A stretch of DNA of 33,274 nucleotides from Alphaproteobacteria bacterium (GTDB lineage Bacteria > Pseudomonadota > Alphaproteobacteria > Rs-D84): contig JAKSTF010000007.1 of NCBI GenBank assembly GCA_024402715.1, positions 1 to 33,274 on the forward strand, read 5' to 3'. Below, one piece after another: positions 1-25,378 of the stretch. The position numbers and the translations under genes are program-made. Under the pieces are notes generated by a model that saw only the letters and a program-made list of their open reading frames with translations, was not told the DNA's origin and did no database searches. Within the stretch, counting starts at the first letter, position 1; each line of letters begins with the position of its first letter.

Positions 1-165
1 CTTTGCTTTTTCCAAGGCTTCATAATAATTTTTCGTATGCAATGATTTTATAAAACACCGGCGTTTACCATCTTGATGTGGTAATTCAACCATATGATAA
101 AATACATTACCCCGTAAATACAGGTTGTCATTTGCTTGACAATTTGCTTTACACTTCTTAAACAT
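1..165 (-). CDS. Phage-type integrase (tyrosine recombinase), N-terminal fragment cut by window edge
   Basis: Fifty-five codons read from an ATG at 165 leftwards off the window. The peptide carries a 'LYLRGNVFYHMVELPH' stretch followed by 'RRCFIKSLHTKNYYEALEKAK'. This matches the N-terminal DUF6538-type domain of alphaproteobacterial phage integrases (a 'LYLR-G-YYFR..VP' strand pair and a 'SLHTKD..EA' helix). The catalytic R..HxxR..Y domain would lie outside the window. The gene starts 133 bases beyond the 3' end of tRNA-Gly and reads away from it, the usual layout for an element integrated into a tRNA 3' end. It was too short for ORF calling. The family call rests on a short N-terminal stretch, so it is probable rather than certain. 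Confidence 0.7.
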   Translation of the reverse strand, partial: MFKKCKANCQANDNLYLRGNVFYHMVELPHQDGKRRCFIKSLHTKNYYEALEKAK

Positions 166-249
166 AGGTTTTTGTCCTTTATTTTTCAGGTGTGCCAAAG
201 CAAAAAATGTTGAAAATTCAAAACATTATTCGCACCGGTAATTTGCGAT

Positions 250-283
250 ACAAAACAAAAAATCCGGTGCAAAAGCCCGGATT
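250..283 (-). terminator. Intrinsic terminator downstream of tRNA-Gly
   Basis: On the minus strand a 7-bp stem, AATCCGG / CCGGATT, closes a 9-base loop and is followed by TTTTTGTTTTG. It sits 15 bases beyond the CCA end of tRNA-Gly, so it probably ends that transcript. Because it lies on the integrase side of the tRNA, it either belongs to the mobile element or was duplicated at the junction. Confidence 0.65.
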
Positions 284-297
284 CCTAATAAAAACTC

Positions 298-374
298 TGG
301 TGCGAGCAAAGGGGCTCGAACCCTCGACCTCAACCTTGGCAAGGTTGCGCTCTAGCCAACTGAGCTACGCTCGC
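298..374 (-). tRNA. tRNA-Gly(GCC)
   Basis: The minus strand folds as a complete 77-nt cloverleaf with encoded CCA. The acceptor stem is GCGAGCG/TGCTCGC (one G-U). The D-arm is GCTC...GAGC. The anticodon stem is CAACC/GGTTG with loop TTGCCAA, giving anticodon GCC. The T-arm has loop TTCGAGC. The discriminator is A, whereas U73 is the usual bacterial glycine identity element. The gene is followed on its 3' side by a terminator and then by a divergently oriented integrase, so the tRNA 3' half is the probable attachment site. Confidence 0.95.
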
Positions 375-450
375 ACTACTTTGGCAAGTTTACATAAAAT
401 TTATCCGTAATGCAAGAAAAAAAATAAAATATTTACACCTACAAAATAAC

Positions 451-478
451 TTGACAAAAACATTTTTGTCCTTAAACT
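451..478 (+). promoter_or_regulatory. Sigma-70-like promoter with an internal perfect palindrome
   Basis: TTGACA (451-456) and TAAACT (473-478) are separated by 16 bases, 29 bases upstream of the ATG at 507. The spacer holds a perfect 8-bp inverted repeat, GACAAAAA-CA-TTTTTGTC (453-470), which overlaps the -35. This is an operator-like position for a dimeric repressor. The palindrome is seen directly; the regulatory role is inference. Confidence 0.55.
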
Positions 479-506
479 GTTTTTGCACAACAAAGATTAA
501 CCAAAA

Positions 507-1049
507 ATGAAAGTTTATTCAAAATATAATTTAACGAAACAGCAAATAAAATATTTTATTTTATCTGCCTTTGCATTGGTAAACACATCTTGCGAAGATT
601 TATTATCTGAAACTGTTAATTACCCAGATTTATACCTACAAATTCAATTTAAACCAACCGATTGGAAAAACAGTGCACTGTATTTGCAAAATATTGATAT
701 TAATGACGATCCAATTATATCAAAATGTGATTCTGTACTGGACTGTGCAATTAACGAACCTGACCCGGTAAAAAATCCACATGGCATTCATTTTTTGGCC
801 AAAGATTTTGATACCGCAACACCAATTGATTTGGTAAAAACACAAATTTATTTAAGTTATATTCGCAAACATATTGCCATAAAATATGGAACCCGTGTGC
901 CGTATGCCTTATCAAGAATAAACGGTACTTGGTCAATTGTTAATCCAACAATATCTGCGGACTCTATTGCAAAATCTGATTACGGATTTGATCCAACAGT
1001 AATCAGCCAGTTTGGATTCAGATATCGCCCAGGGCAAAAAACAAAATAA
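507..1049 (+). CDS. Hypothetical exported or lipid-anchored protein
   Basis: The protein has 180 residues and I do not recognise a family. After a polar start (residues 1-15) there is a hydrophobic stretch, 'YFILSAFALVNTSC' (residues 16-29), that ends in a cysteine. This resembles a lipoprotein signal, although the lipobox (V-N-T-S-C) is poor. The rest is polar with many Asp and Asn, a cysteine pair around 'SKCDSVLDC', and no obvious repeats. The ATG is 29 bases after a good promoter, and a strong bidirectional terminator follows immediately, so the gene is probably monocistronic. It lies between tRNA-Gly and the era-tgt cluster. Confidence 0.75.
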   Translation: MKVYSKYNLTKQQIKYFILSAFALVNTSCEDLLSETVNYPDLYLQIQFKPTDWKNSALYLQNIDINDDPIISKCDSVLDCAINEPDPVKNPHGIHFLAKDFDTATPIDLVKTQIYLSYIRKHIAIKYGTRVPYALSRINGTWSIVNPTISADSIAKSDYGFDPTVISQFGFRYRPGQKTK

Positions 1050-1083
1050 AAAAACAGGTTCCAAATGGAACCTATTTTTTTAT
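1050..1083. terminator. Bidirectional intrinsic terminator
   Basis: AGGTTCC-AAAT-GGAACCT (1056-1073) is flanked by A-runs on the left and T-runs on the right, so it works in both directions. It separates the converging hypothetical gene (ending 1049) and the coiled-coil membrane protein (ending 1080), whose stop codon lies in the T-run. Confidence 0.85.
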
Positions 1084-2066
1084 AACCATTTCCACGGTTG
1101 GAATATTTTCAATAAACTAACCGCCGTACGTTTATCTGCAAACGCATGACCACAACGTGGGCAAACAATAAACGCAGCCAACATCGCCTTAACCTTTTTA
1201 AATAACAACATCCACACCAAAAATCCAACGGCCCATGCGGCACCAACCAATCCCCATGCTACATATCCGAAATATGTATTAACCGTTCCTGTCAGGGCTT
1301 TAATTATATCAACATTTGATTTTTCTAAATCGTTATATATTTTTGTTGCAACAGGCCATGATGATGGACGCCATGGATACACATGCTTTATACCATAATT
1401 AGTCAACAATGTTGTTCCCAACCCACCGGTAGATTTATCCAACTGTTTTTTTACGGCTTCGTCTATCATTTTATCAAATTCTGCCTGTAATACAGACGTT
1501 AAATCCTTTTCGACTTTGTCTAATTTTTCATTAACCAACTTTGCGGTATCATCAACCTTTGCTATGGCTGAATCAGCCTTGGCAATATTATTATCAACCT
1601 TGTTCACTGCTTTGTCCACAGCACCGGTTTTTACGCCAAATTTACCAGCCAGACCAGTCAAAGTTTTAACACCACCAGTAGCATTTTTTGCATTATCTGT
1701 TACCTGTTTTGCTTGTGTTGTTTTATCTGTAACCTTTTCCACCGCCCCTTGTGCAATTTTAACTTTGTCTATGGCAACGGATACCGGTTTTTCCAAATTG
1801 ATTGAATTCTTGATACTGGCCAATAATTTTTCATACTGCGCAACCATATTACGTTGAACATCAAAAAACATAGAAATAACTATTGATTTTTTAATTGGCT
1901 GTGAATATGTATTTTTAACATATAATGGTGCCCACACAACAAAAGCAATCCAGGCAAACGTTACAAGTGCAAATATGCGCTTTACCCACGTAATGTACGC
2001 AGTCTTTTTTGCAACGGTTTTAGCCCCATCACGTTCAATAACATCTATTTCCTTTTTCTTGGACAT
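1080..2066 (-). CDS. Two-TM coiled-coil membrane protein with C-terminal half zinc ribbon, unknown function
   Basis: The protein has 328 residues in this order: a basic cytoplasmic head; a TM segment (about 29-50, 'IFALVTFAWIAFVVWAPLYV'); a long Ala/Lys/Val/Asp-rich helical region (about 80-210) with heptad-like 'DKAVNKVDNNIAKADSAIAKVD' character, likely coiled coil; a second TM (about 267-290); and a C-terminal tail with a CPRCGH motif near residue 302. A single C-x2-C would need a partner to bind zinc. A GGAGG ribosome site lies 8 bases before the ATG. It is the last gene of the minus-strand era-queA-tgt run, 69 bases after tgt. I do not recognise the family; a role in envelope scaffolding is possible but not shown. 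Confidence 0.8.
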   Translation of the reverse strand: MSKKKEIDVIERDGAKTVAKKTAYITWVKRIFALVTFAWIAFVVWAPLYVKNTYSQPIKKSIVISMFFDVQRNMVAQYEKLLASIKNSINLEKPVSVAIDKVKIAQGAVEKVTDKTTQAKQVTDNAKNATGGVKTLTGLAGKFGVKTGAVDKAVNKVDNNIAKADSAIAKVDDTAKLVNEKLDKVEKDLTSVLQAEFDKMIDEAVKKQLDKSTGGLGTTLLTNYGIKHVYPWRPSSWPVATKIYNDLEKSNVDIIKALTGTVNTYFGYVAWGLVGAAWAVGFLVWMLLFKKVKAMLAAFIVCPRCGHAFADKRTAVSLLKIFQPWKWL

Positions 2067-2135
2067 TTCTATACCTCCGTATTTATATATTCACAGTCTA
2101 AATCGCATTTACTACACATGCAAGTGATATCTATA

Positions 2136-3245
2136 CTATTGTCCAGTATATTTTTTAATAAAATCACGTTTAAATTCTGCAAAACGCCCCTGCTCTATGC
2201 TGGTACGAATATCACGCATTAAATCCTGATAGAACCACAAATTATGTTGTGTCAATAATGTTGCCCCCAACATTTCATTGCATTTAATTAAGTGATGAAT
2301 ATATGCACGTGACAATTTACAAGCCGGACATCCACATTTATCATCCAATGGTGCAGAATCATCACGGAATCGTGCATTTTTCATATTCATTGTCCCATTT
2401 CTGGTAAATGCCTGGGCGGTACGTCCGGCCCGTGTTGGCATAACACAATCAAACATATCGATACCGCGTTCAACCGCCCCCAATATATCCAATGGTGTTC
2501 CAACCCCCATTAAATATCGTGGTTTATCCGTCGGCAACAACGGCGTCACAGTTGCAATCATATCAAACATTACATCTTGTGATTCCCCAACAGCCAACCC
2601 ACCAACCGCATATCCATCAAAGCCAATTTCTGTCAACGCACGTGCAGATTTTTCACGTAAATCGTGATAATCTGCCCCCTGAACGATTCCAAAAATTCCA
2701 TATCCCGGTCGATCAACAAAGGCTTCTTTACTACGCCGTGCCCAACGCGTCACCATATCAACATTTTTTTCAACACGTGCACGTTCCGCCGGCAAATGTA
2801 AACATTCATCTAATACCATTGTAATATTAGAATCCAATTGATGCTGAATATGAACAGAATCTTCGGGACGTAAAAAATGCTTTACCCCCCCGTCTATGTG
2901 CGAAGTAAATTCAACCCCCATTTCGTTCATTTTTACCAAATTTGATAATGACATAACCTGAAAACCACCACTGTCTGTCAAAATTGGGCCATGCCACCCG
3001 CTAAAATTATGCAATCCCCCCATTTTTTCAACCAAATCCCCACCTGGACGCATCATCAAATGATACGTATTACCCAATATAACCTGTGTTCCGGTTGCTG
3101 CAACATGATCCATTGTTAACGCCTTAACCGTGGCCGCCGTTCCAACCGCCATAAATGCCGGCGTATCAAAGGTTCCATGTGCTGTTTCGACACGACCACG
3201 GCGTGCGTTTCCATCAGTTACAATTAAATCAAATTTCAGAGACAT
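2136..3245 (-). CDS. tgt: Queuine tRNA-ribosyltransferase (tRNA-guanine transglycosylase)
   Basis: It exchanges G34 of GUN-anticodon tRNAs (Asp, Asn, His, Tyr) for the queuosine precursor preQ1 in the cytoplasm. The 369 residues match the usual length. Visible marks are 'GNTYHL' (58-63), 'LTDSGGFQVMSL' (89-100) with the substrate-binding Asp, 'GGLAVGE' (215-221), 'RYLMGVGTP' (243-251), and 'GIDMFDCVMPTR' (261-272) with the catalytic aspartate. The zinc site is C304-x-C306-x2-C309 with H334. It lies 105 bases downstream of queA, the next enzyme of the same pathway, in one minus-strand cluster. No defect is seen. Confidence 0.97.
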   Translation of the reverse strand: MSLKFDLIVTDGNARRGRVETAHGTFDTPAFMAVGTAATVKALTMDHVAATGTQVILGNTYHLMMRPGGDLVEKMGGLHNFSGWHGPILTDSGGFQVMSLSNLVKMNEMGVEFTSHIDGGVKHFLRPEDSVHIQHQLDSNITMVLDECLHLPAERARVEKNVDMVTRWARRSKEAFVDRPGYGIFGIVQGADYHDLREKSARALTEIGFDGYAVGGLAVGESQDVMFDMIATVTPLLPTDKPRYLMGVGTPLDILGAVERGIDMFDCVMPTRAGRTAQAFTRNGTMNMKNARFRDDSAPLDDKCGCPACKLSRAYIHHLIKCNEMLGATLLTQHNLWFYQDLMRDIRTSIEQGRFAEFKRDFIKKYTGQ

Positions 3246-3350
3246 TTATTCTTATCCATTTATTTAAAACATTCCATCCAAACATTTTTTCCAAGTACCA
3301 TTTTTTCGTATTCAGAAATTAATATTTTTCCTGTTTATTTAACAATCCCT

Positions 3351-4367
3351 TTAATCCTTTTTAAACAACAAGCAACAATCACCATAACTAAAAAATCTGT
3401 ATTCATTATCAATCGCGTGTTTATATGCCAATTTCATTTCATCTATACCAGCAAATGCAGAAACCAACATAAATAATGTCGATTTCGGTAAATGAAAATT
3501 TGTTAATAACATATCAACCGCACGAAACTGATATCCCGGTGTAATAAATATATCCGTATTTGCACAAATTGGTGCAACACGATTTTTATCAACCGCCAAT
3601 TTCGCCGCCGATTCCAATGTACGCATTGACGTTGTTCCAACGGCAATCACACGTTTCGCATTATTAATAATATCTGCCTGCTGGGGTGTTATACAACACC
3701 ATTCGCTGTGCATTTTATGTTCTGATAAATTTTCTGTTTTGACCGGCATCCATGTTCCAGCCCCAACATGCAATGTAACCTTTACAATTTTAGCACCACG
3801 TTTTTCTATCTCTGTCATTAATTCTGGTGTAAAATGTAATCCAGCGGTGGGCGCTGCCATCGAACCCAATGGATCACTGTAAACGGTCTGATAACGTTCC
3901 CGATCTGAAAATTCCTCATCTCGTTTCATATATGGCGGTAACGGCATTTTGCCAACACGGTTCAAAACATCAAAAACATTGTCACAATTAAACTGTAATT
4001 TTAGGCCACTGTCGTCATCGTGTGCCAATACAGTCACCGTTGTGCCATCGTCCAAAACTAATTCCGAACCAACCGGAATTTTGTTGAACTTTTTACACAA
4101 CCCCCACCAAATTTTATCATTTTCCCCAGACGTATGTAACGTAATTTCAAAGCCAGATGCCATAAATCGTGCAGGTATCACACGTGAATTATTAAAAACA
4201 ACCACATCACCTGGATGTAAATAATCTAAAAAATCTAGAATATATTTATCAGATATATTATTTGGTTGCACAACCAACATACGCGACGCATCACGTCGCA
4301 CCAACGGACGCGACGCAATTAATTTTGACGGCAAATCAAAATCAAAATCAGATGTATGTAACACCAT
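3351..4367 (-). CDS. queA: S-adenosylmethionine:tRNA ribosyltransferase-isomerase (QueA)
   Basis: It transfers and isomerises the ribosyl group of SAM onto preQ1-tRNA to give epoxyqueuosine. The protein has 338 residues, the normal family length. Recognisable stretches are 'DFDFDLPSKLIASRPL' at the start, 'GDVVVFNNSRVIPAR', 'MPLPPYMKR', 'RYQTVYSDPLGSMAAPTAGLHFT' (the strongest family signature), 'VTLHVGAGTWMPVKTENLSEHKMHSE' and 'TNFHLPKSTLFMLVSAFAG'. It starts 11 bases after the small lipoprotein gene and precedes tgt, so all are likely co-transcribed. No preQ1 synthesis genes are in the window. Confidence 0.97.
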   Translation of the reverse strand: MVLHTSDFDFDLPSKLIASRPLVRRDASRMLVVQPNNISDKYILDFLDYLHPGDVVVFNNSRVIPARFMASGFEITLHTSGENDKIWWGLCKKFNKIPVGSELVLDDGTTVTVLAHDDDSGLKLQFNCDNVFDVLNRVGKMPLPPYMKRDEEFSDRERYQTVYSDPLGSMAAPTAGLHFTPELMTEIEKRGAKIVKVTLHVGAGTWMPVKTENLSEHKMHSEWCCITPQQADIINNAKRVIAVGTTSMRTLESAAKLAVDKNRVAPICANTDIFITPGYQFRAVDMLLTNFHLPKSTLFMLVSAFAGIDEMKLAYKHAIDNEYRFFSYGDCCLLFKKD

Positions 4368-19709: not shown

Positions 19710-20051
19710 ATGAATACATATTATCGTGGGTTATTCGCCGAATGGTTATCACGTATGTATTTACGGATGCACGGTTTTCGTATTATCCATTCCAGATACA
19801 TAACCGGCCGAAATACAGGACGTGCTGAAATTGACATAATTGCCCGTCGTAAAACATTACTTGTTTTTATAGAGGTAAAAAATCATAAAACAATCAACAG
19901 TGCATGGTCAGCAATTACAGACAAACAAATCAAACGTCTGCGTCGCAGCGGTGAAACATACATATCACGTACACGGTGGCATGGTGATGCACGTTTTGAT
20001 GTAATTATTGTAAATGGTTGGCACATACATTGGATAAAAAACGCAATATAA
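19710..20051 (+). CDS. yraN: YraN/UPF0102 family protein
   Basis: The protein has 113 residues. The restriction-endonuclease-like core shows 'GRAEIDIIARRKTLLVFIEVKNHKT' (the E-x-D...E-V-K metal-site pattern of the family), then 'AITDKQIKRLRRSGETYISR' and 'ARFDVIIVNG'. The family is nearly universal; a nuclease-like or Holliday-junction-related role has been proposed but is not settled. It begins 3 bases after the M23 gene and ends in a strong bidirectional terminator. Confidence 0.9.
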   Translation: MNTYYRGLFAEWLSRMYLRMHGFRIIHSRYITGRNTGRAEIDIIARRKTLLVFIEVKNHKTINSAWSAITDKQIKRLRRSGETYISRTRWHGDARFDVIIVNGWHIHWIKNAI

Positions 20052-20080
20052 AATCCTAAGAATCTTTCTTAGGATTTTAT
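20049..20080. terminator. Bidirectional intrinsic terminator
   Basis: The 11-bp stem AAAATCCTAAG / CTTAGGATTTT has a 7-base loop (20050-20078). It ends yraN from the left and the restriction-modification-like operon from the right. Confidence 0.85.
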
Positions 20081-20102
20081 ATTTATTAATAAATAATTAT
20101 AA

Positions 20103-22682
20103 CTAATTAACTAATTTATTTATATTTTCAATCATATCTGACAATTTTATACCACGATATGCGAAACACGTTGGTCCCCGATGTTTCCAATCTTTTCCAT
20201 CGGATTTTGATAATATTTTTGCCAAATCTGCCAATGAATATGGATTTCCGTTATATAAAACGCTTTGTAAATCTGTGGCGATATAACATTTCTTATTTGG
20301 ATCACGTGTGAACACCAATTCTTCACCTGCTTTTAAGCCAATTTCATCAAATGAAAATTTATTTGATAAAATTAGTTTTGTCGGTACAACCTTTGGAACC
20401 CCAAATTCATCACGTAAAATTTGTTCCCAATCACGTGATACAAATTCTTCATTTTTAAACCTGGCAATGGCTTTATCCAAAACATCTGATTTAAAGAAAC
20501 TTTTTCCGTCTTTGTCCTTAAAATCATATAATTTTTTAAACTGTTCCACACCTATAAAACATATCTTATTAAACAAATCTGGTTCTTTGGTTGTTACAAT
20601 TTCATAAACATTAGATTCTTGGGCATCTGTAATATATATAAATATCGTTAAACTGGATATTAAAATATCCAATTTCGCTTTTCTGATATCGTATTTAGAT
20701 TCTTGTTTACGTTTTGGATCAACCGGCATTTTCTTGTCTAATTTCTTTTTTTTGTTTTCCCCTGGGGCTTTGGGTTCTTTGTTGGTACTTTTATTTTCCT
20801 TTTTGTAATATGGGATACTATCTATAATTTGTAAAATTTCGTTATCAGAATGTTCTAACAATTCGACTTTGATATTATTTGAACGTAAAAAGGCCTTTTT
20901 TAACCGTTCCGGGCTTACATCAAAGCTAACATATTGCATAATATCATCATATGATGTTGTAATCATATTCCCATCTATATACAAATGCGTTTCTATCAGG
21001 TTTTCTTCCACAACCTTACGCGGATCACGATTTTTAGAATTAGACCGTGCAAATGCTAACATATTATTGAAATAACGCTGTGGATTAAAATCGAATACAT
21101 AACAATCTGATTTATCCGGTGAACATGGACTTTGGCACCGGAATATAGATTGAAAGAAATCTTGTGCGGAATGTTTATCTTGTAACATAACAACAGAATC
21201 TAATGTTTTTATTGTAACACCGGTATTTAACATACCGCATGATAAACATATAATTTTATCCGTTTGTTGTTCTAATTCATGAAATTTATCCAACGAATTT
21301 TTACTTGAGCCCTCGCCTGCACCAGATGCATTTATAATTTTGTATTTATTAAAAAATTTATGATTATTTAACAATTTCTCCATTGCACATACAGATGCAA
21401 CATCTGGTAAAAACCATATTGATTTTTTGTTTTTATCAATCATTTCCTGAAAATAAGGCAATGTCACATCATAATCTTTGATATCCTTGTCTTCAGTTAA
21501 ATCAAATTGTTCACCACACATAAAATCAATCAGACGTTTTACAGAATCACAGTTTATAAATTCTGCTGTTTTATAATCTGTTTTTTTATTCACATCTTTT
21601 TGAACCTTTGTTTTAAACAACACATTTATATTAAATTCTGTATCAACAAAATCATTAACCAAATCACGTGCACCATCAAACGTGTAAATATGCATATCCG
21701 GCAAATCTTTATATGGATTTTGATTTTTATCCCCCTGCCATCCATATTTGGCCTTTTGCTCTTGTTGATAGGTCCAGTTATATATTTCATCATCGTGATA
21801 TTCTGCATCATCTATTATCTTGAAAGGTGTTCCCGACAATTCTAATTTTTTCTTATATTTGATTTTTTCTAAAATCTTTCTGGTATTTTTGGCACGTGTT
21901 CCATAATGCGCTTCATCAATTACCAATAAATCCCAATTTATATCTGCTATTTGCTTAATTTTATCTGTAAATATATTTATATTTGTATCTGTTATTTCCG
22001 CGTCATCTTCTGATTCCGAATCTTCGGCCGATGCATTGGCTAATAGTAATGGAACCGATAAAAATACAACATTTCTTTTTGCGTTATCAAACGTATCCAA
22101 TGTATCTTTGTTTATGAAATTTATCCCCTTAAAATCACGGTGAGACAACAAATCATTTTTCCACCCATCTTCGACCGCAACTTTCCATGTTAAAACCAAT
22201 ATATTGTTAAAATGTGCACGGTTCATTAATTGATAGGTAGTAAACGTTTTTCCAAAACGCATTTTACAGTTCCATAAAAATTTATCGCTGCCTGAATTAA
22301 AGGCATTCATGGTCGCCTGTACACATTCGTCCTGTTCGGCACGTGGTGCAAAATCTTGTGTCCGTAACAAATCCAATGGTTCATTATGTTTTAACGAAAC
22401 TATGATTGATTTTACCTTGTTTGCAAATTCTTTTTCACTTTCCCCGTCTGGAACAATATACCATTCATCACCATGCGATTTATCAACCGAATAATGCAAG
22501 TCATTTATTAAAACCTGCTTTATGTTATCGTCTGTTAAATCAACATTATATTCAATATGCCAAATTCGTGGGATAAAGCCACTGGTTTTATATGCTTTCT
22601 CGCGTTTAAGCCAATCATTGGTTTGTCCAACCTTTACCAGGCTACGGTTATCATTTGGATTCGAAATAACATAAATATTCAT
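20103..22682 (-). CDS. GIY-YIG (T5orf172-type) nuclease fused to SF2 helicase, restriction-type
   Basis: The protein has 859 residues. Residues 1-80 form a T5orf172-like GIY-YIG nuclease: 'IYVISNP', 'LVKVGQTN', Arg27 in the helix and Glu73 in 'DEWYIV'. A superfamily 2 helicase follows: 'CKMRFGKT' Walker A (139-146), DEAH (256-259), 'SGTPF' (283-287), and 'SCGMLNTGVTI' and 'QSIFRCQSP' in the second RecA domain. A Lys-rich linker (about 645-680) leads to a C-terminal domain with 'IGLKAGEELVFTRDP...YNGNPYSLADLAKIL', which resembles RAMA-type domains. It probably translocates on and cuts unmodified DNA. An AGGGGGAAC ribosome site lies 9 bases after the short methyltransferase gene. Activity and target are inferred. 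Confidence 0.85.
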   Translation of the reverse strand: MNIYVISNPNDNRSLVKVGQTNDWLKREKAYKTSGFIPRIWHIEYNVDLTDDNIKQVLINDLHYSVDKSHGDEWYIVPDGESEKEFANKVKSIIVSLKHNEPLDLLRTQDFAPRAEQDECVQATMNAFNSGSDKFLWNCKMRFGKTFTTYQLMNRAHFNNILVLTWKVAVEDGWKNDLLSHRDFKGINFINKDTLDTFDNAKRNVVFLSVPLLLANASAEDSESEDDAEITDTNINIFTDKIKQIADINWDLLVIDEAHYGTRAKNTRKILEKIKYKKKLELSGTPFKIIDDAEYHDDEIYNWTYQQEQKAKYGWQGDKNQNPYKDLPDMHIYTFDGARDLVNDFVDTEFNINVLFKTKVQKDVNKKTDYKTAEFINCDSVKRLIDFMCGEQFDLTEDKDIKDYDVTLPYFQEMIDKNKKSIWFLPDVASVCAMEKLLNNHKFFNKYKIINASGAGEGSSKNSLDKFHELEQQTDKIICLSCGMLNTGVTIKTLDSVVMLQDKHSAQDFFQSIFRCQSPCSPDKSDCYVFDFNPQRYFNNMLAFARSNSKNRDPRKVVEENLIETHLYIDGNMITTSYDDIMQYVSFDVSPERLKKAFLRSNNIKVELLEHSDNEILQIIDSIPYYKKENKSTNKEPKAPGENKKKKLDKKMPVDPKRKQESKYDIRKAKLDILISSLTIFIYITDAQESNVYEIVTTKEPDLFNKICFIGVEQFKKLYDFKDKDGKSFFKSDVLDKAIARFKNEEFVSRDWEQILRDEFGVPKVVPTKLILSNKFSFDEIGLKAGEELVFTRDPNKKCYIATDLQSVLYNGNPYSLADLAKILSKSDGKDWKHRGPTCFAYRGIKLSDMIENINKLVN

Positions 22683-22691
22683 CTGTTCCCC

Positions 22692-23219
22692 CTATAATGG
22701 TAATGTTTCTTGGGCGGGCCGATCCTGTATGCCCAACATATGTTTTAACGTTTCAAATTCGCCGGTTTTCCAATCTTTGAATTTTAAATCATCACCATTT
22801 GCGTCCAGCATGGTCAACGTATTGCCACAAATTATATTTGTATCCAGAATATGCATTACCTGTTCAATTTGTTCCCACATCAGACACATACATTCGCATT
22901 TTTGTATATGATGCAAAAACACATCCAACAATCTGCATTTACATTCGTTAATATTATCTGCCATAATATCAACACCATACAGTGATTGTATTGCAATAAT
23001 ACAATCATCAACCGTTTTACATTGCCGCAATTTACGGCTTAAAATTTCCGCCAAAAAATTTCCTGTTCCACATGATGGTTCCAAAAATGTGGAATCAATT
23101 TGCTGCCAAATTTTCTTTGGAATTAATTTACACATATCATGCACAATCTTTAGTGGGGTAAAAACTTCCCCCAAGTCCCGAACGCGTGTGCAAGATTTAA
23201 TTAAAGAACATTTATTCAT
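22692..23219 (-). CDS. Short N6-adenine methyltransferase-like protein lacking NPPY
   Basis: The protein has 175 residues. 'LGEVFTPLKIVHDM' (16-29) and SAM motif I 'FLEPSCGTGNFLAEIL' (45-60) are intact, as are a motif II-like 'LYGVDIMADNINECKCRLLDVFL' and 'NIICGNTL'. The catalytic (N/D)PPY motif and target-recognition region are absent; the protein simply ends. It overlaps the upstream methyltransferase by 8 bases (ATGAATAA) and is 9 bases from the helicase gene, so the three are one operon. Short EVFTP proteins of this size occur elsewhere in mobile DNA, so this may be a natural SAM-binding partner rather than a wreck. It is also Cys-rich. Confidence 0.8.
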   Translation of the reverse strand: MNKCSLIKSCTRVRDLGEVFTPLKIVHDMCKLIPKKIWQQIDSTFLEPSCGTGNFLAEILSRKLRQCKTVDDCIIAIQSLYGVDIMADNINECKCRLLDVFLHHIQKCECMCLMWEQIEQVMHILDTNIICGNTLTMLDANGDDLKFKDWKTGEFETLKHMLGIQDRPAQETLPL

Positions 23220-24759
23220 TGTCCGTATCTATATCTGTTGTAGTTTCATTATCCATCGGCAGAATCTGTTGTTCAATAAACTCTATTTCTTGTGGTGTAA
23301 GTTGATATTTGTTATATAATTCTTTGTCTGTCCAGCTTTTTGTAAAATCTGGTAATGGTATCAATAGAAATGAATCTTGTGATATATTTAATGAATGTCT
23401 ATTATAAAATAACAATGCTCGACAAAATTTTGTTTCTATATATTTTAAACAATTTTGTGCCTCTTTTTGTGTATTAAACGGTCCTATTTCTAAAAAGGTT
23501 TCTGTACATATTTCACTGGGTTTTCCTAAAATTATCTTAGGTGGCACAGTAGATGTTGCCATATATGCTTTTGAAAAGAACAATTTATATTTATCAAAGG
23601 ATTTTATATTTTTAATTATGAATTCTTTTTTTACGAAACAAGTTGTCCTTCTAGCACCACCTTTTTTGCCTTTTACACCATAAACTTTTAAAAGACCTGT
23701 TCCTTCATTTGTTATTTGTGGCACATTTGGGTATCTGTCAGGAAAATTAAAAAAATCTGCTCCAAGTCCATAGGGTTTTCTGGCAGACACAATTTGATTA
23801 AACTTATTTTCTTTTAAACTTGCCACTTTTTGAATAATAGATAATTGCCTGATGTCTCTTATCACAGTATCTGAAACATCTGTCTTTAAGTATCGTTCTG
23901 TTGTAAAAGTATCACCATCTAATGCTTTATATGTATACTGTAGTTTTTCGTTATGCTTAAAATCCCATAAAAAATAACAAACCCCTCCATCCAAATGAAT
24001 CAAAGTAAAACATTCAGAAGCATTAGCATAATCCACAATATGACTTATTCTGGTGTCATTAATCATTTCTTCCCTGAATGAATCTAACCCTTTGCCACCT
24101 TTCATCCAACGGCTTGGGACTATCATACATATAAATTGAGGCAATAACAATTTTGCTTGTTGAATAAACTTTTGATAGATTGGTCTAGCACTATCACCGG
24201 TCCCGCCACCATCATTTTCTTGATATGGCGGATTACCGATAATGACATCAAATCGCATGTCCTTTATCCCCTTGGTTTCAAAAAAATTGGAAATTTCTGC
24301 TTGATTTTCTATAAAATGAAAACACTGTTTTTCGGTCTCTATCCCGTCTTTGTCTTTTACATAACGACCGAGGCGTTCATCAAAAAATATATTGTCTATA
24401 TCGGCAAATTTATCGTTGCACGTATATAAACTGCGTTTTGTCACACGATATCCGCGGTATGATATTGCAATACCAAACATACGGTGTCGCAATATATGGT
24501 CAATAATTTCATCTTGGTGTTTGCGAAAAGCATTTGGACCCATTTGTTCGTATTTTTTACGTAAAATTCTTAGTGTTGCCTCGCGCAGAAAAATACCATC
24601 TTTGCACGCGGGACATAACACCGTTGCATTATCGTCCAACCAAACGCTTTCTGGAATTAAATCCAGCATATCATTTACAATTTTCGGTGGTGTGGGTGTT
24701 TCCGTATTCACCATACATTGTAAATATTCCAATATATCTTTTCTTGAATTTCCGGCCAT
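23212..24759 (-). CDS. Eco57I-like N6-adenine DNA methyltransferase of restriction-modification operon
   Basis: The protein has 515 residues from ATG 24759 (MAGNSRKDIL) with AAGGAAAC upstream. The longer frame to 24834 is rejected because it crosses a terminator hairpin. Motif I is 'VLCPACKDGIFLREA' (47-61), a variant in which KDG replaces GSG. 'FDVIIGNPPYQENDGGGTGDSARPIYQKF' (170-198) holds the catalytic NPPY (176-179). 'MIVPSRWMKGGKGLDSFREEM' and 'VDYANASECFTLIHLDGGVCYFLW' are typical of Eco57I-type enzymes. The C-terminal half (about 300-490) probably carries DNA-target recognition. It is the first gene of a three-gene operon and would mark self DNA for the downstream nuclease-helicase. 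Confidence 0.88.
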   Translation of the reverse strand: MAGNSRKDILEYLQCMVNTETPTPPKIVNDMLDLIPESVWLDDNATVLCPACKDGIFLREATLRILRKKYEQMGPNAFRKHQDEIIDHILRHRMFGIAISYRGYRVTKRSLYTCNDKFADIDNIFFDERLGRYVKDKDGIETEKQCFHFIENQAEISNFFETKGIKDMRFDVIIGNPPYQENDGGGTGDSARPIYQKFIQQAKLLLPQFICMIVPSRWMKGGKGLDSFREEMINDTRISHIVDYANASECFTLIHLDGGVCYFLWDFKHNEKLQYTYKALDGDTFTTERYLKTDVSDTVIRDIRQLSIIQKVASLKENKFNQIVSARKPYGLGADFFNFPDRYPNVPQITNEGTGLLKVYGVKGKKGGARRTTCFVKKEFIIKNIKSFDKYKLFFSKAYMATSTVPPKIILGKPSEICTETFLEIGPFNTQKEAQNCLKYIETKFCRALLFYNRHSLNISQDSFLLIPLPDFTKSWTDKELYNKYQLTPQEIEFIEQQILPMDNETTTDIDTDNE

Positions 24760-24788: not shown

Positions 24789-24822
24789 AAAAATCAAAAA
24801 ACCACCAATATATGTGGTGGTC
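24789..24822 (-). terminator. Intrinsic terminator ahead of the methyltransferase gene
   Basis: On the minus strand ACCACCA-CATATAT-TGGTGGT (24801-24821) is followed by TTTTTGATTTTTT. It lies only about 30 bases upstream of the methyltransferase ATG (24759) on the same strand. It either ends a separate small RNA or acts as an attenuator of the operon. Confidence 0.75.
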
Positions 24823-25065
24823 GGGTGAGTTCAAAAATCATACTATCAGTGATCCCACGGCTTTCCGTATAAAAATACGTATTATATAACCAATGGCCCC
24901 CCGACCATAAAAAATGTGTCAGGGATGTATAACGATGCAAAAAGCACCGAAAACATCAGATTACGATGCTTTCACACCGGATAGTAAGGGCTTTTGAAGA
25001 CCCCGAACCAAAATCCCTTTTGGCTCTTTTGATATCGTTTATATAAACGGCTATCGCCAATTATA
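24822..25065 (-). ncRNA. Candidate structured leader or small RNA upstream of the restriction-modification operon
   Basis: A stretch of about 250 bases without any reading frame. On the minus strand a TATAAT (25060-25065) has a weak -35, and transcription would start near 25052 and end at the terminator at 24789-24822. Several local hairpins are visible: CGTTTATATAAACG; CCAAAA-GGGA-TTTTGG with a GNRA loop; a 9-bp AAAGCATCG/CGGTGCTTT; CGTAT-TTTT-ATACG; and ACGG-AAAG-CCGT. It matches no tmRNA, RNase P, 4.5S or riboswitch pattern I can recognise. The -35 is poor and no conservation can be checked, so its existence as an RNA is inference. Confidence 0.45.
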
Positions 25066-25147: not shown

Positions 25148-25378
25148 TTAATGCTGGGGAAAACACTGTATAAAATCATCTATGGTTGCCCCGGTGGCCG
25201 ATAACATTTTGGCGATTGTCCCAAACGACAACCAACGCGGTTGTCCAAATTTTGAAAAACGTTTACTTTTATTAAACACAGTTGAATCCAACCCACATCT
25301 ACGTGCCAATCCAGAACAAGAATATCCACGTATTTCTGCAAATTTTTCAACTGCAATCCATACATCTGAATGATTCAT
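25148..25378 (-). CDS. HTH DNA-binding regulator (S24/LexA-repressor-like N-terminal domain only)
   Basis: The protein has 76 residues. 'YSCSGLARRCGLDSTVFNKSKR' is a helix-turn-helix, and 'RWLSFGTIAKMLSATGATIDDFIQ' follows. The whole protein matches the N-terminal domain of alphaproteobacterial phage-type S24 repressors ('GLARRAGLDPTTFNKSKR ... P.W.S...IAK.L.ATG'). The peptidase domain is absent. AAGGAAAA lies before the ATG. It precedes the methyltransferase operon on the same strand, a position like that of restriction-modification controller (C) proteins. The HTH is clear; control of this operon is inference. Confidence 0.8.
   Translation of the reverse strand: MNHSDVWIAVEKFAEIRGYSCSGLARRCGLDSTVFNKSKRFSKFGQPRWLSFGTIAKMLSATGATIDDFIQCFPQH

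What the first reader, a model, noticed from the sequence alone, without database searches (positions are those of the whole stretch)
20103..24759. Three-gene restriction-like operon with a GIY-YIG/SF2 helicase fusion and split methyltransferase functions
One protein joins a T5orf172-like GIY-YIG nuclease, a DEAH helicase with an unusual CKMRFGKT Walker A, and a RAMA-like C-terminal domain. It is encoded behind a complete Eco57I-like methyltransferase and a short methyltransferase-like protein. Overlaps of 8 bases and a 9-base gap make one operon. It fits neither the classic type I (HsdRMS), type III (Mod/Res) nor type IIG layout: there is no separate specificity subunit and no PD-(D/E)XK nuclease. 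Seen: domains and order. Inferred: anti-phage restriction.
Basis: partly seen in the sequence, partly recalled or inferred. Interest (0 to 1): 0.78.

Follow-up and report, generated by a model that had tools for sequence, protein, structure and literature searches.

The report
DrdVI-type split restriction operon, RNA-led
The three genes are a divergent, rearranged relative of a known but little-studied bacterial DNA-cutting defence system (DrdVI of Deinococcus), and they sit behind a conserved folded RNA leader that is not in the public RNA library and occurs throughout this group of bacteria.

Summary
The operon is real, at the stated coordinates, and all three proteins are homologous to the DrdVI system of Deinococcus wulumuqiensis (M2 35% E 3e-98, M1 37% E 2e-29, R 28% E 2e-75). 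DrdVI is a "split methylase" Type IIG system whose M1+M2 genes methylate GCAGCC (m6A) and whose R is a fused GIY-YIG nuclease/translocase. The CKMRFGKT Walker A is invariant in the family. The "RAMA" tail is not confirmed.

What is new is the variant. Gene order is M2-M1-R; 88 other complete loci all have M1 first. R carries a tail shared only with small GIY-YIG proteins. The R branch is very long, and the acidic residue at the presumed GIY-YIG metal position is Ile.

Across the family M2 has Lys for the SAM-binding Gly of motif I, while M1 keeps that Gly but lacks NPPY. M2 homologues without M1 mostly keep Gly. I infer one methyltransferase shared by two subunits.

Just upstream lies a 5' leader RNA of about 220 nt with strong covariation, found in 173 of 191 genomes of the order, absent from Rfam at gathering threshold, and preceding other R-M and accessory genes.

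The parts
24796..25026 (-). conserved structured 5' leader RNA (~220 nt) ending 37 nt before the M2 start codon
   Evidence: covariance model R1 190 bits; covariation and slid/shuffled controls; 173/191 genomes of the order; -10 box upstream of copies. The window copy is not among those with a strong -10 by eye
23212..24759 (-). M2: Eco57I-like m6A methyltransferase with target-recognition region, 515 aa; altered motif I (CPACKDGIF, residues 49-57), motif IV NPPY (176-179)
   Evidence: Pfam PF07669 E 3.7e-31; 35% to DrdVI M2, E 3e-98; alignment
22692..23219 (-). M1: SAM-binding lobe only, 175 aa; motif X-like GEVFTP, canonical motif I FLEPSCGTGNFL, no NPPY
   Evidence: 37% to DrdVI M1, E 1.5e-29; alignment
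20103..22682 (-). R: fused nuclease/translocase, 859 aa
   Evidence: 28% to DrdVI R, E 2e-75; domains
22443..22682 (-). R residues 1-80: T5orf172-type GIY-YIG domain (Y4, K17, R27, H63, E73; Ile at position 59 where the other 31 aligned relatives have Asp)
20883..22415 (-). R residues ~90-600: SF2 translocase core (Walker A CKMRFGKT 139-146, DEAH 256-259, motif VI QSIFRCQ 511-517)
20106..20402 (-). R residues ~761-859: C-terminal domain shared with PDC-S57 (T5orf172 + tail) proteins; RAMA-like but not shown to be RAMA
20045..20083 (-). perfect 18-bp inverted repeat followed by T-rich tail: likely terminator after R

Best explanation
A restriction-modification operon of the DrdVI type (REBASE 'split methylase' Type IIG). 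M1 and M2 together make one adenine methyltransferase: M2 carries the catalytic NPPY motif and the target-recognition region, and M1 carries the intact SAM-binding lobe. They methylate one adenine in a short asymmetric site and so mark self DNA. R, recruited through M2 at unmethylated sites, uses its SF2 motor to move along DNA and its N-terminal GIY-YIG domain to cut. Shown here: homology of all three proteins to DrdVI, gene linkage, motif distribution, and the domain folds in part. Shown by others for relatives: M1+M2 clones of DrdVI and MaeIV give m6A at GCAGCC and GCACY. Inferred: the shared active site, recruitment of R, cutting, and protection from phage. The window's copy is a divergent variant whose nuclease may be weakened, because the presumed metal-binding acid is Ile. 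Expression probably depends on the structured leader RNA upstream.
For: Pairwise homology of all three proteins to the genes of plasmid pDrdVI; publications on DrdVI and MaeIV; the same three genes linked in many phyla, plasmids and prophages; fused and partly fused versions, including in the same genus, that join the same parts in one protein; M1 never has NPPY (0 of 89) and keeps the motif I Gly (89 of 89), while M2 has NPPY (76 of 79) and Lys at that Gly (74 of 79); M2 with Lys goes with M1 in 56 sequence clusters against 3 without, and M2 with Gly goes without M1 in 5 clusters against 0 with; a DNA-level repeat between the M1 and M2 N-lobes; T5orf172 above cut-off for residues 1-89; SF2 translocase fold, with LlaBIII and SauUSI among the PDB matches.
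Against: The GIY-YIG metal-ligand position (Asp in all 31 other aligned relatives, Glu in ordinary T5orf172 proteins) is Ile, and the catalytic Arg sits one residue off in the alignment. R lies on a very long branch, outside the group of ordinary DrdVI-type R proteins, and its join to another long branch may be an artefact. The Lys/Gly-M1 association follows deep clades, so it may reflect few evolutionary events. No methylation or phage data exist for this organism.
Confidence: 0.8

Rival explanations
1. The operon descends from a DrdVI system but has lost restriction: it now only methylates, or R acts as a translocase or blocking factor without cutting DNA.
For: Ile at the presumed GIY-YIG metal position and other departures of R from family-invariant residues; long branch.
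Against: All three ORFs are intact; the Walker A, DEAH and motif VI residues, Y4, K17, H63 and E73 are kept; losing R usually leaves a truncated gene, not an 859-aa frame.
Confidence: 0.25
2. M2 is a fully working methyltransferase by itself and M1 is an accessory protein (activity or stability factor), not the SAM-binding half.
For: M2 has a complete fold region with motif X-like, motif I-like and motif IV segments and a TRD.
Against: The Gly of motif I is Lys in 74 of 79 M2 proteins, and the window M2 has also lost the motif I Asp; M1 is present in nearly every locus where M2 has Lys.
Confidence: 0.3
3. A Type I, Type III, Type ISP or BREX system that has been rearranged.
For: Shared parts: gamma-type m6A methyltransferase, SF2 motor, weak PglX and MTase_I profile hits.
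Against: No HsdS, no Mod/Res pair, no PD-(D/E)XK domain in the operon; full-length matches to DrdVI proteins are far stronger.
Confidence: 0.04

Closest known systems
DrdVI (M1-2.DrdVI / DrdVI, Deinococcus wulumuqiensis NEB 479, plasmid pDrdVI)
   Same: Three adjacent co-directional genes: M1 SAM-binding lobe, M2 Eco57I-like methyltransferase with TRD, R GIY-YIG/SF2 fusion; all three homologous.
   Different: Order M1-M2-R in DrdVI, M2-M1-R here; M1 is 212 aa against 175; the DrdVI R ends where the tail domain begins here; DrdVI R has Asp at the position of Ile59.
M1-M2.MaeIV of Methanococcus aeolicus (GCACY)
   Same: Described as the same split methylase/RM family as DrdVI.
   Different: Archaeal; its sequences were not compared here.
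Fused GIY-YIG/helicase/methyltransferase proteins on Lactococcus, Enterococcus and Paenisporosarcina plasmids, and in the same genus
   Same: Same parts, with a separate M1 gene upstream.
   Different: M2 is fused in whole or in part to R (about 1,300-1,470 aa).
Type ISP enzymes (LlaBIII, LlaGI)
   Same: SF2 motor plus gamma m6A methyltransferase with one TRD; PDB match of the R model to 4xqk.
   Different: One polypeptide with an Mrr-type PD-(D/E)XK nuclease (PMC4666363); here GIY-YIG and three chains.
OspHL35III-like Type IIG systems (PMC4752239)
   Same: Separate methyltransferase with TRD, translocase and GIY-YIG nuclease.
   Different: MmeI-like methyltransferase, and nuclease and translocase on separate chains; no M1.
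sRNA-Xcc1 (RF02221), for the leader RNA
   Same: Weak matches (27.9 and 30 bits, cut-off 53) to the 3' half of two leader copies; it lies upstream of symE in Xanthomonas integron cassettes.
   Different: 87 nt against about 220 nt; below the gathering score, so kinship is unproven.

Membership tests
DrdVI-type split Type IIG R-M | M1: stand-alone SAM-binding lobe homologous to M1.DrdVI | tested here: met
   37% identity, E 1.5e-29; no NPPY
DrdVI-type split Type IIG R-M | M2: Eco57I-like methyltransferase with TRD homologous to M2.DrdVI | tested here: met
   35% over 497 residues, E 3e-98
DrdVI-type split Type IIG R-M | R: GIY-YIG nuclease fused to an SF2 translocase | tested here: met
   28%, E 2e-75; T5orf172 above cut-off for residues 1-89; ResIII E 9e-16
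DrdVI-type split Type IIG R-M | three adjacent co-directional genes | tested here: met
DrdVI-type split Type IIG R-M | usual order M1 before M2 before R (a common trait, not part of any published definition) | tested here: not met
   88 loci with M1 first against the window with M2-M1-R; some loci overlap or are near-duplicates
DrdVI-type split Type IIG R-M | M1+M2 methylate adenine in an asymmetric site | not testable with these tools
   shown for DrdVI and MaeIV in papers
GIY-YIG nuclease (T5orf172) | fold and sequence profile | tested here: met
   PF10544 E 9e-5 above cut-off; secondary structure; Slx1/I-TevI matches weak, Z 4.2/2.7
GIY-YIG nuclease (T5orf172) | complete catalytic set, including the acidic metal ligand | tested here: inconclusive
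   Y4, K17, R27 and H63 present; Ile59 where relatives have Asp or Glu
RAMA domain (PF18755) | match to the curated profile | tested here: inconclusive
   no Pfam hit at E 10; RAMA model does not find it; hhalign p 0.013, probability 3%
Type I (HsdRMS) | HsdS specificity subunit | tested here: not met
   no S gene among the three operon genes
Type ISP | single polypeptide with Mrr-type PD-(D/E)XK nuclease | tested here: not met
   three chains, GIY-YIG N-terminus
Type III (Mod/Res) | Mod/Res pair with nuclease C-terminal to the Res helicase | tested here: not met
   nuclease is N-terminal GIY-YIG; Eco57I-class methyltransferase
BREX | PglZ, BrxC and other core genes | not tested
   the other genes of the window were not all scanned for them

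The most novel reading that the evidence does not exclude
The operon is switched by a previously undescribed class of structured 5' leader RNA (about 220 nt, six covarying helices, and an 8-bp alternative helix that would exclude two of them), which this order of Alphaproteobacteria-like bacteria places, with its own promoter, about 21-25 nt before the start codons of accessory genes, including several unrelated R-M systems.
Probability: 0.65. Interest if true: 0.78.

Novelty: new variant of a known kind. Interest (0 to 1): 0.5.

Why it matters
DrdVI-type systems are widespread on plasmids, prophages and gut bacterial chromosomes, yet appear in the literature I could search only in short methylome papers. 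The motif pattern gives a direct test of how their two methyltransferase chains divide one active site. The leader RNA would be a new RNA family that ties R-M and other accessory genes to a common post-transcriptional control, a question that is open for R-M regulation.

Tried and rejected
Whole-window Rfam scan: only tRNAs at gathering threshold. Viral-contig searches with the window proteins themselves found no relatives; the M2 family alignment found 67 loci. No close relative of the window's own variant was found in family, order or class searches. Foldseek on the GIY-YIG model gave no significant hit; the VIA-align second look put GIY-YIG folds on top but at Z about 4. The AlphaFold model of full R is of moderate confidence (pLDDT 64), so no geometry was read from it. 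RAMA membership: not supported. I looked for a remnant of M1 upstream of M2 as a trace of the order swap; none was found, but that search uncovered the leader RNA. An idea that the leader marks R-M genes only was rejected: many copies precede secreted or lipoprotein genes. The HTH ORF at 25148-25378 as an R-M control gene: homologues occur in two same-genus loci, but no firm link was found. Whole-genome download was not available.
Full report
What is there. M2 carries an Eco57I domain (E 3.7e-31), M1 an N6_Mtase fragment, and R a ResIII helicase (E 9e-16) and a T5orf172 GIY-YIG domain. The last is below Pfam's cut-off for the whole protein (E 0.003) but above it when residues 1-89 are scanned alone (E 9e-5). 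The modelled N-terminal domain has GIY-YIG order of strands and helices, and its best structural matches are Slx1 nucleases and I-TevI, at low Z. The tail of R (about residues 761-859) is not RAMA by Pfam. It matches the second half of PADLOC PDC-S57 (E 4.8e-18), a family of about 220-aa T5orf172 proteins that occur in the same genus. Profile alignment to RAMA is suggestive only.

What it is. A search of annotated plasmids led to pDrdVI of Deinococcus wulumuqiensis NEB 479, which carries the same three genes. Pairwise scores against those proteins are M2 35% E 3e-98, M1 37% E 2e-29 and R 28% E 2e-75.

The family. The same genes were found in Desulfovibrio, Faecalibacterium, Mollicutes, Spirochaetes, Actinobacteria and others, on plasmids and in phage and viral contigs. 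Three architectures occur: separate M1, M2 and R; M1 with R and M2 fused; and M1 with a short M2 C-part and an R that carries the M2 N-lobe. The window's own genome holds a second system of the last kind at a contig edge. In 88 loci with all parts (some overlapping or near-duplicate) M1 comes first; only the window has M2-M1-R. Of 129 helicase-bearing proteins only the window's has the tail. The Walker A WNxKMRFGKT is invariant in 32 aligned R proteins, so it is a family mark and not an oddity of this gene. In a maximum-likelihood tree the window R has a branch of 3.5 changes per column and lies outside the ordinary DrdVI clade; its join with another long branch may be an artefact.

How the methyltransferase is divided. 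M1 proteins (89 distinct) all keep the motif I Gly and none has NPPY. M2 proteins (79 distinct) have NPPY in 76 and Lys in place of that Gly in 74. The window M2 has even lost the motif I Asp (CPACKDGIF) but keeps the Lys. M1 is a paralogue of the N-lobe of M2 by sequence and leaves a DNA-level repeat in the window. Where M2 has Lys, M1 is present in 56 of 59 sequence clusters; where M2 has Gly, M1 is absent in all 5 (Fisher p 7e-6). The clusters are not independent, since the Gly forms are mostly phage orphans in other clades. I infer that M1 supplies the SAM site and M2 the catalytic motif and target recognition.

Does it still cut? In the GIY-YIG domain Y4, K17, H63 and E73 are kept and R27 is one residue away from the family Arg in the alignment. 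Position 59, Asp in the 31 other aligned relatives and Glu in ordinary T5orf172 proteins, is Ile. A single acidic side chain binds the metal in GIY-YIG restriction enzymes (PMC4081073). That position 59 is this ligand is inferred from alignment, so reduced or altered cleavage is a real possibility.

The leader RNA. While looking for a remnant of M1 upstream of M2, I found that 25026-24796 is similar to DNA upstream of the canonical DrdVI operon of a same-genus genome. Four more copies in the host genome precede a Type I HsdM gene, two EcoRI-type methylase genes and a GIY-YIG-domain gene. An alignment of 38 copies folds into six helices with 44 pairs. Of these, 23 have changes on both sides; 94.7% of cells pair, against 86.3% in shuffles and at most 51% in slid controls; there are 156 two-sided cells against 42.5 in shuffles. 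The long-range helix 2 alone has seven pairs, all with compensatory changes. An 8-bp alternative helix, compatible with 97.7% of cells but without covariation of its own, would exclude helices 4 and 6, as in an attenuator. Most copies have a TATAAT-like box 8-13 nt before the first base (38 of 63 in a 7-offset span, against 7 of 63 in a control span), and 49 of 75 end 18-26 nt before a start codon. A covariance model finds the element in 173 of 191 genomes of the order and 17 of 22 genera, often in ten or more copies. At the class level a BLAST search found it in only one genome outside the order. Rfam has no match at gathering score; two copies show weak hits to sRNA-Xcc1, an RNA that lies upstream of symE in Xanthomonas integron cassettes (PMC12444791). 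Downstream genes are not only R-M genes: many are secreted or lipoprotein genes, so the leader is a general device for accessory genes that this operon shares. The copies were seeded from the window's own, so the share of R-M genes among them should not be read as an enrichment.

Verdict. A divergent, rearranged member of the DrdVI family of split Type IIG systems, probably a working methyltransferase with an uncertain nuclease, under a leader RNA that I could not match to any described family. The R-M part alone is moderately interesting; the leader RNA and the divided methyltransferase are the parts worth follow-up.

Noticed in passing
window 24796-25026 (-) and up to about 12 copies per genome across the order (model R1): Undescribed structured 5' leader RNA family with strong covariation and its own -10 box, upstream of R-M, 5mC methylase, secreted-protein and lipoprotein genes; not in Rfam at gathering score.
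   Followed up: yes
L302:592-828 and 2010-2246: Two copies of the leader RNA about 1.4 kb apart, each followed by an ORF: possible tandem array of leader-plus-gene cassettes.
   Followed up: no
L002 / L082 (host contig C34, positions 1-3449): Second DrdVI-like system in the same genome: R fused to the M2 N-lobe, with the end of an M2-like C-part just upstream at the contig edge.
   Followed up: partly
L043, L045-L047, L049-L053: Small (175-240 aa) T5orf172 plus tail proteins (PADLOC PDC-S57) in many genomes of the family; one (L049) has a degenerate GIY-YIG part.
   Followed up: partly
L004:5102-6294, L006:5108-6291: Two adjacent M1 genes before M2 in two related loci.
   Followed up: no
L154, L156 (viral contigs): Stand-alone phage methyltransferases in which an M1-type lobe (canonical motif I) is fused to the M2 catalytic/TRD part, as if M1+M2 in one chain.
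   Followed up: partly
L147, L149, L157, L169: Large phage contigs with M1, M2 and R pieces in other orders (M2 part before M1), without a complete DrdVI operon.
   Followed up: no
window 24811-24906 (-) and L270:1606-1698, against RF02221: Weak sRNA-Xcc1 matches at the same part of the leader; sRNA-Xcc1 may be a distant relative of this leader.
   Followed up: partly
window 25148-25378 (-): Small Cro/C1-like HTH ORF upstream of the leader, with homologues near other DrdVI-type loci of the genus (L079, L080); role unknown.
   Followed up: partly
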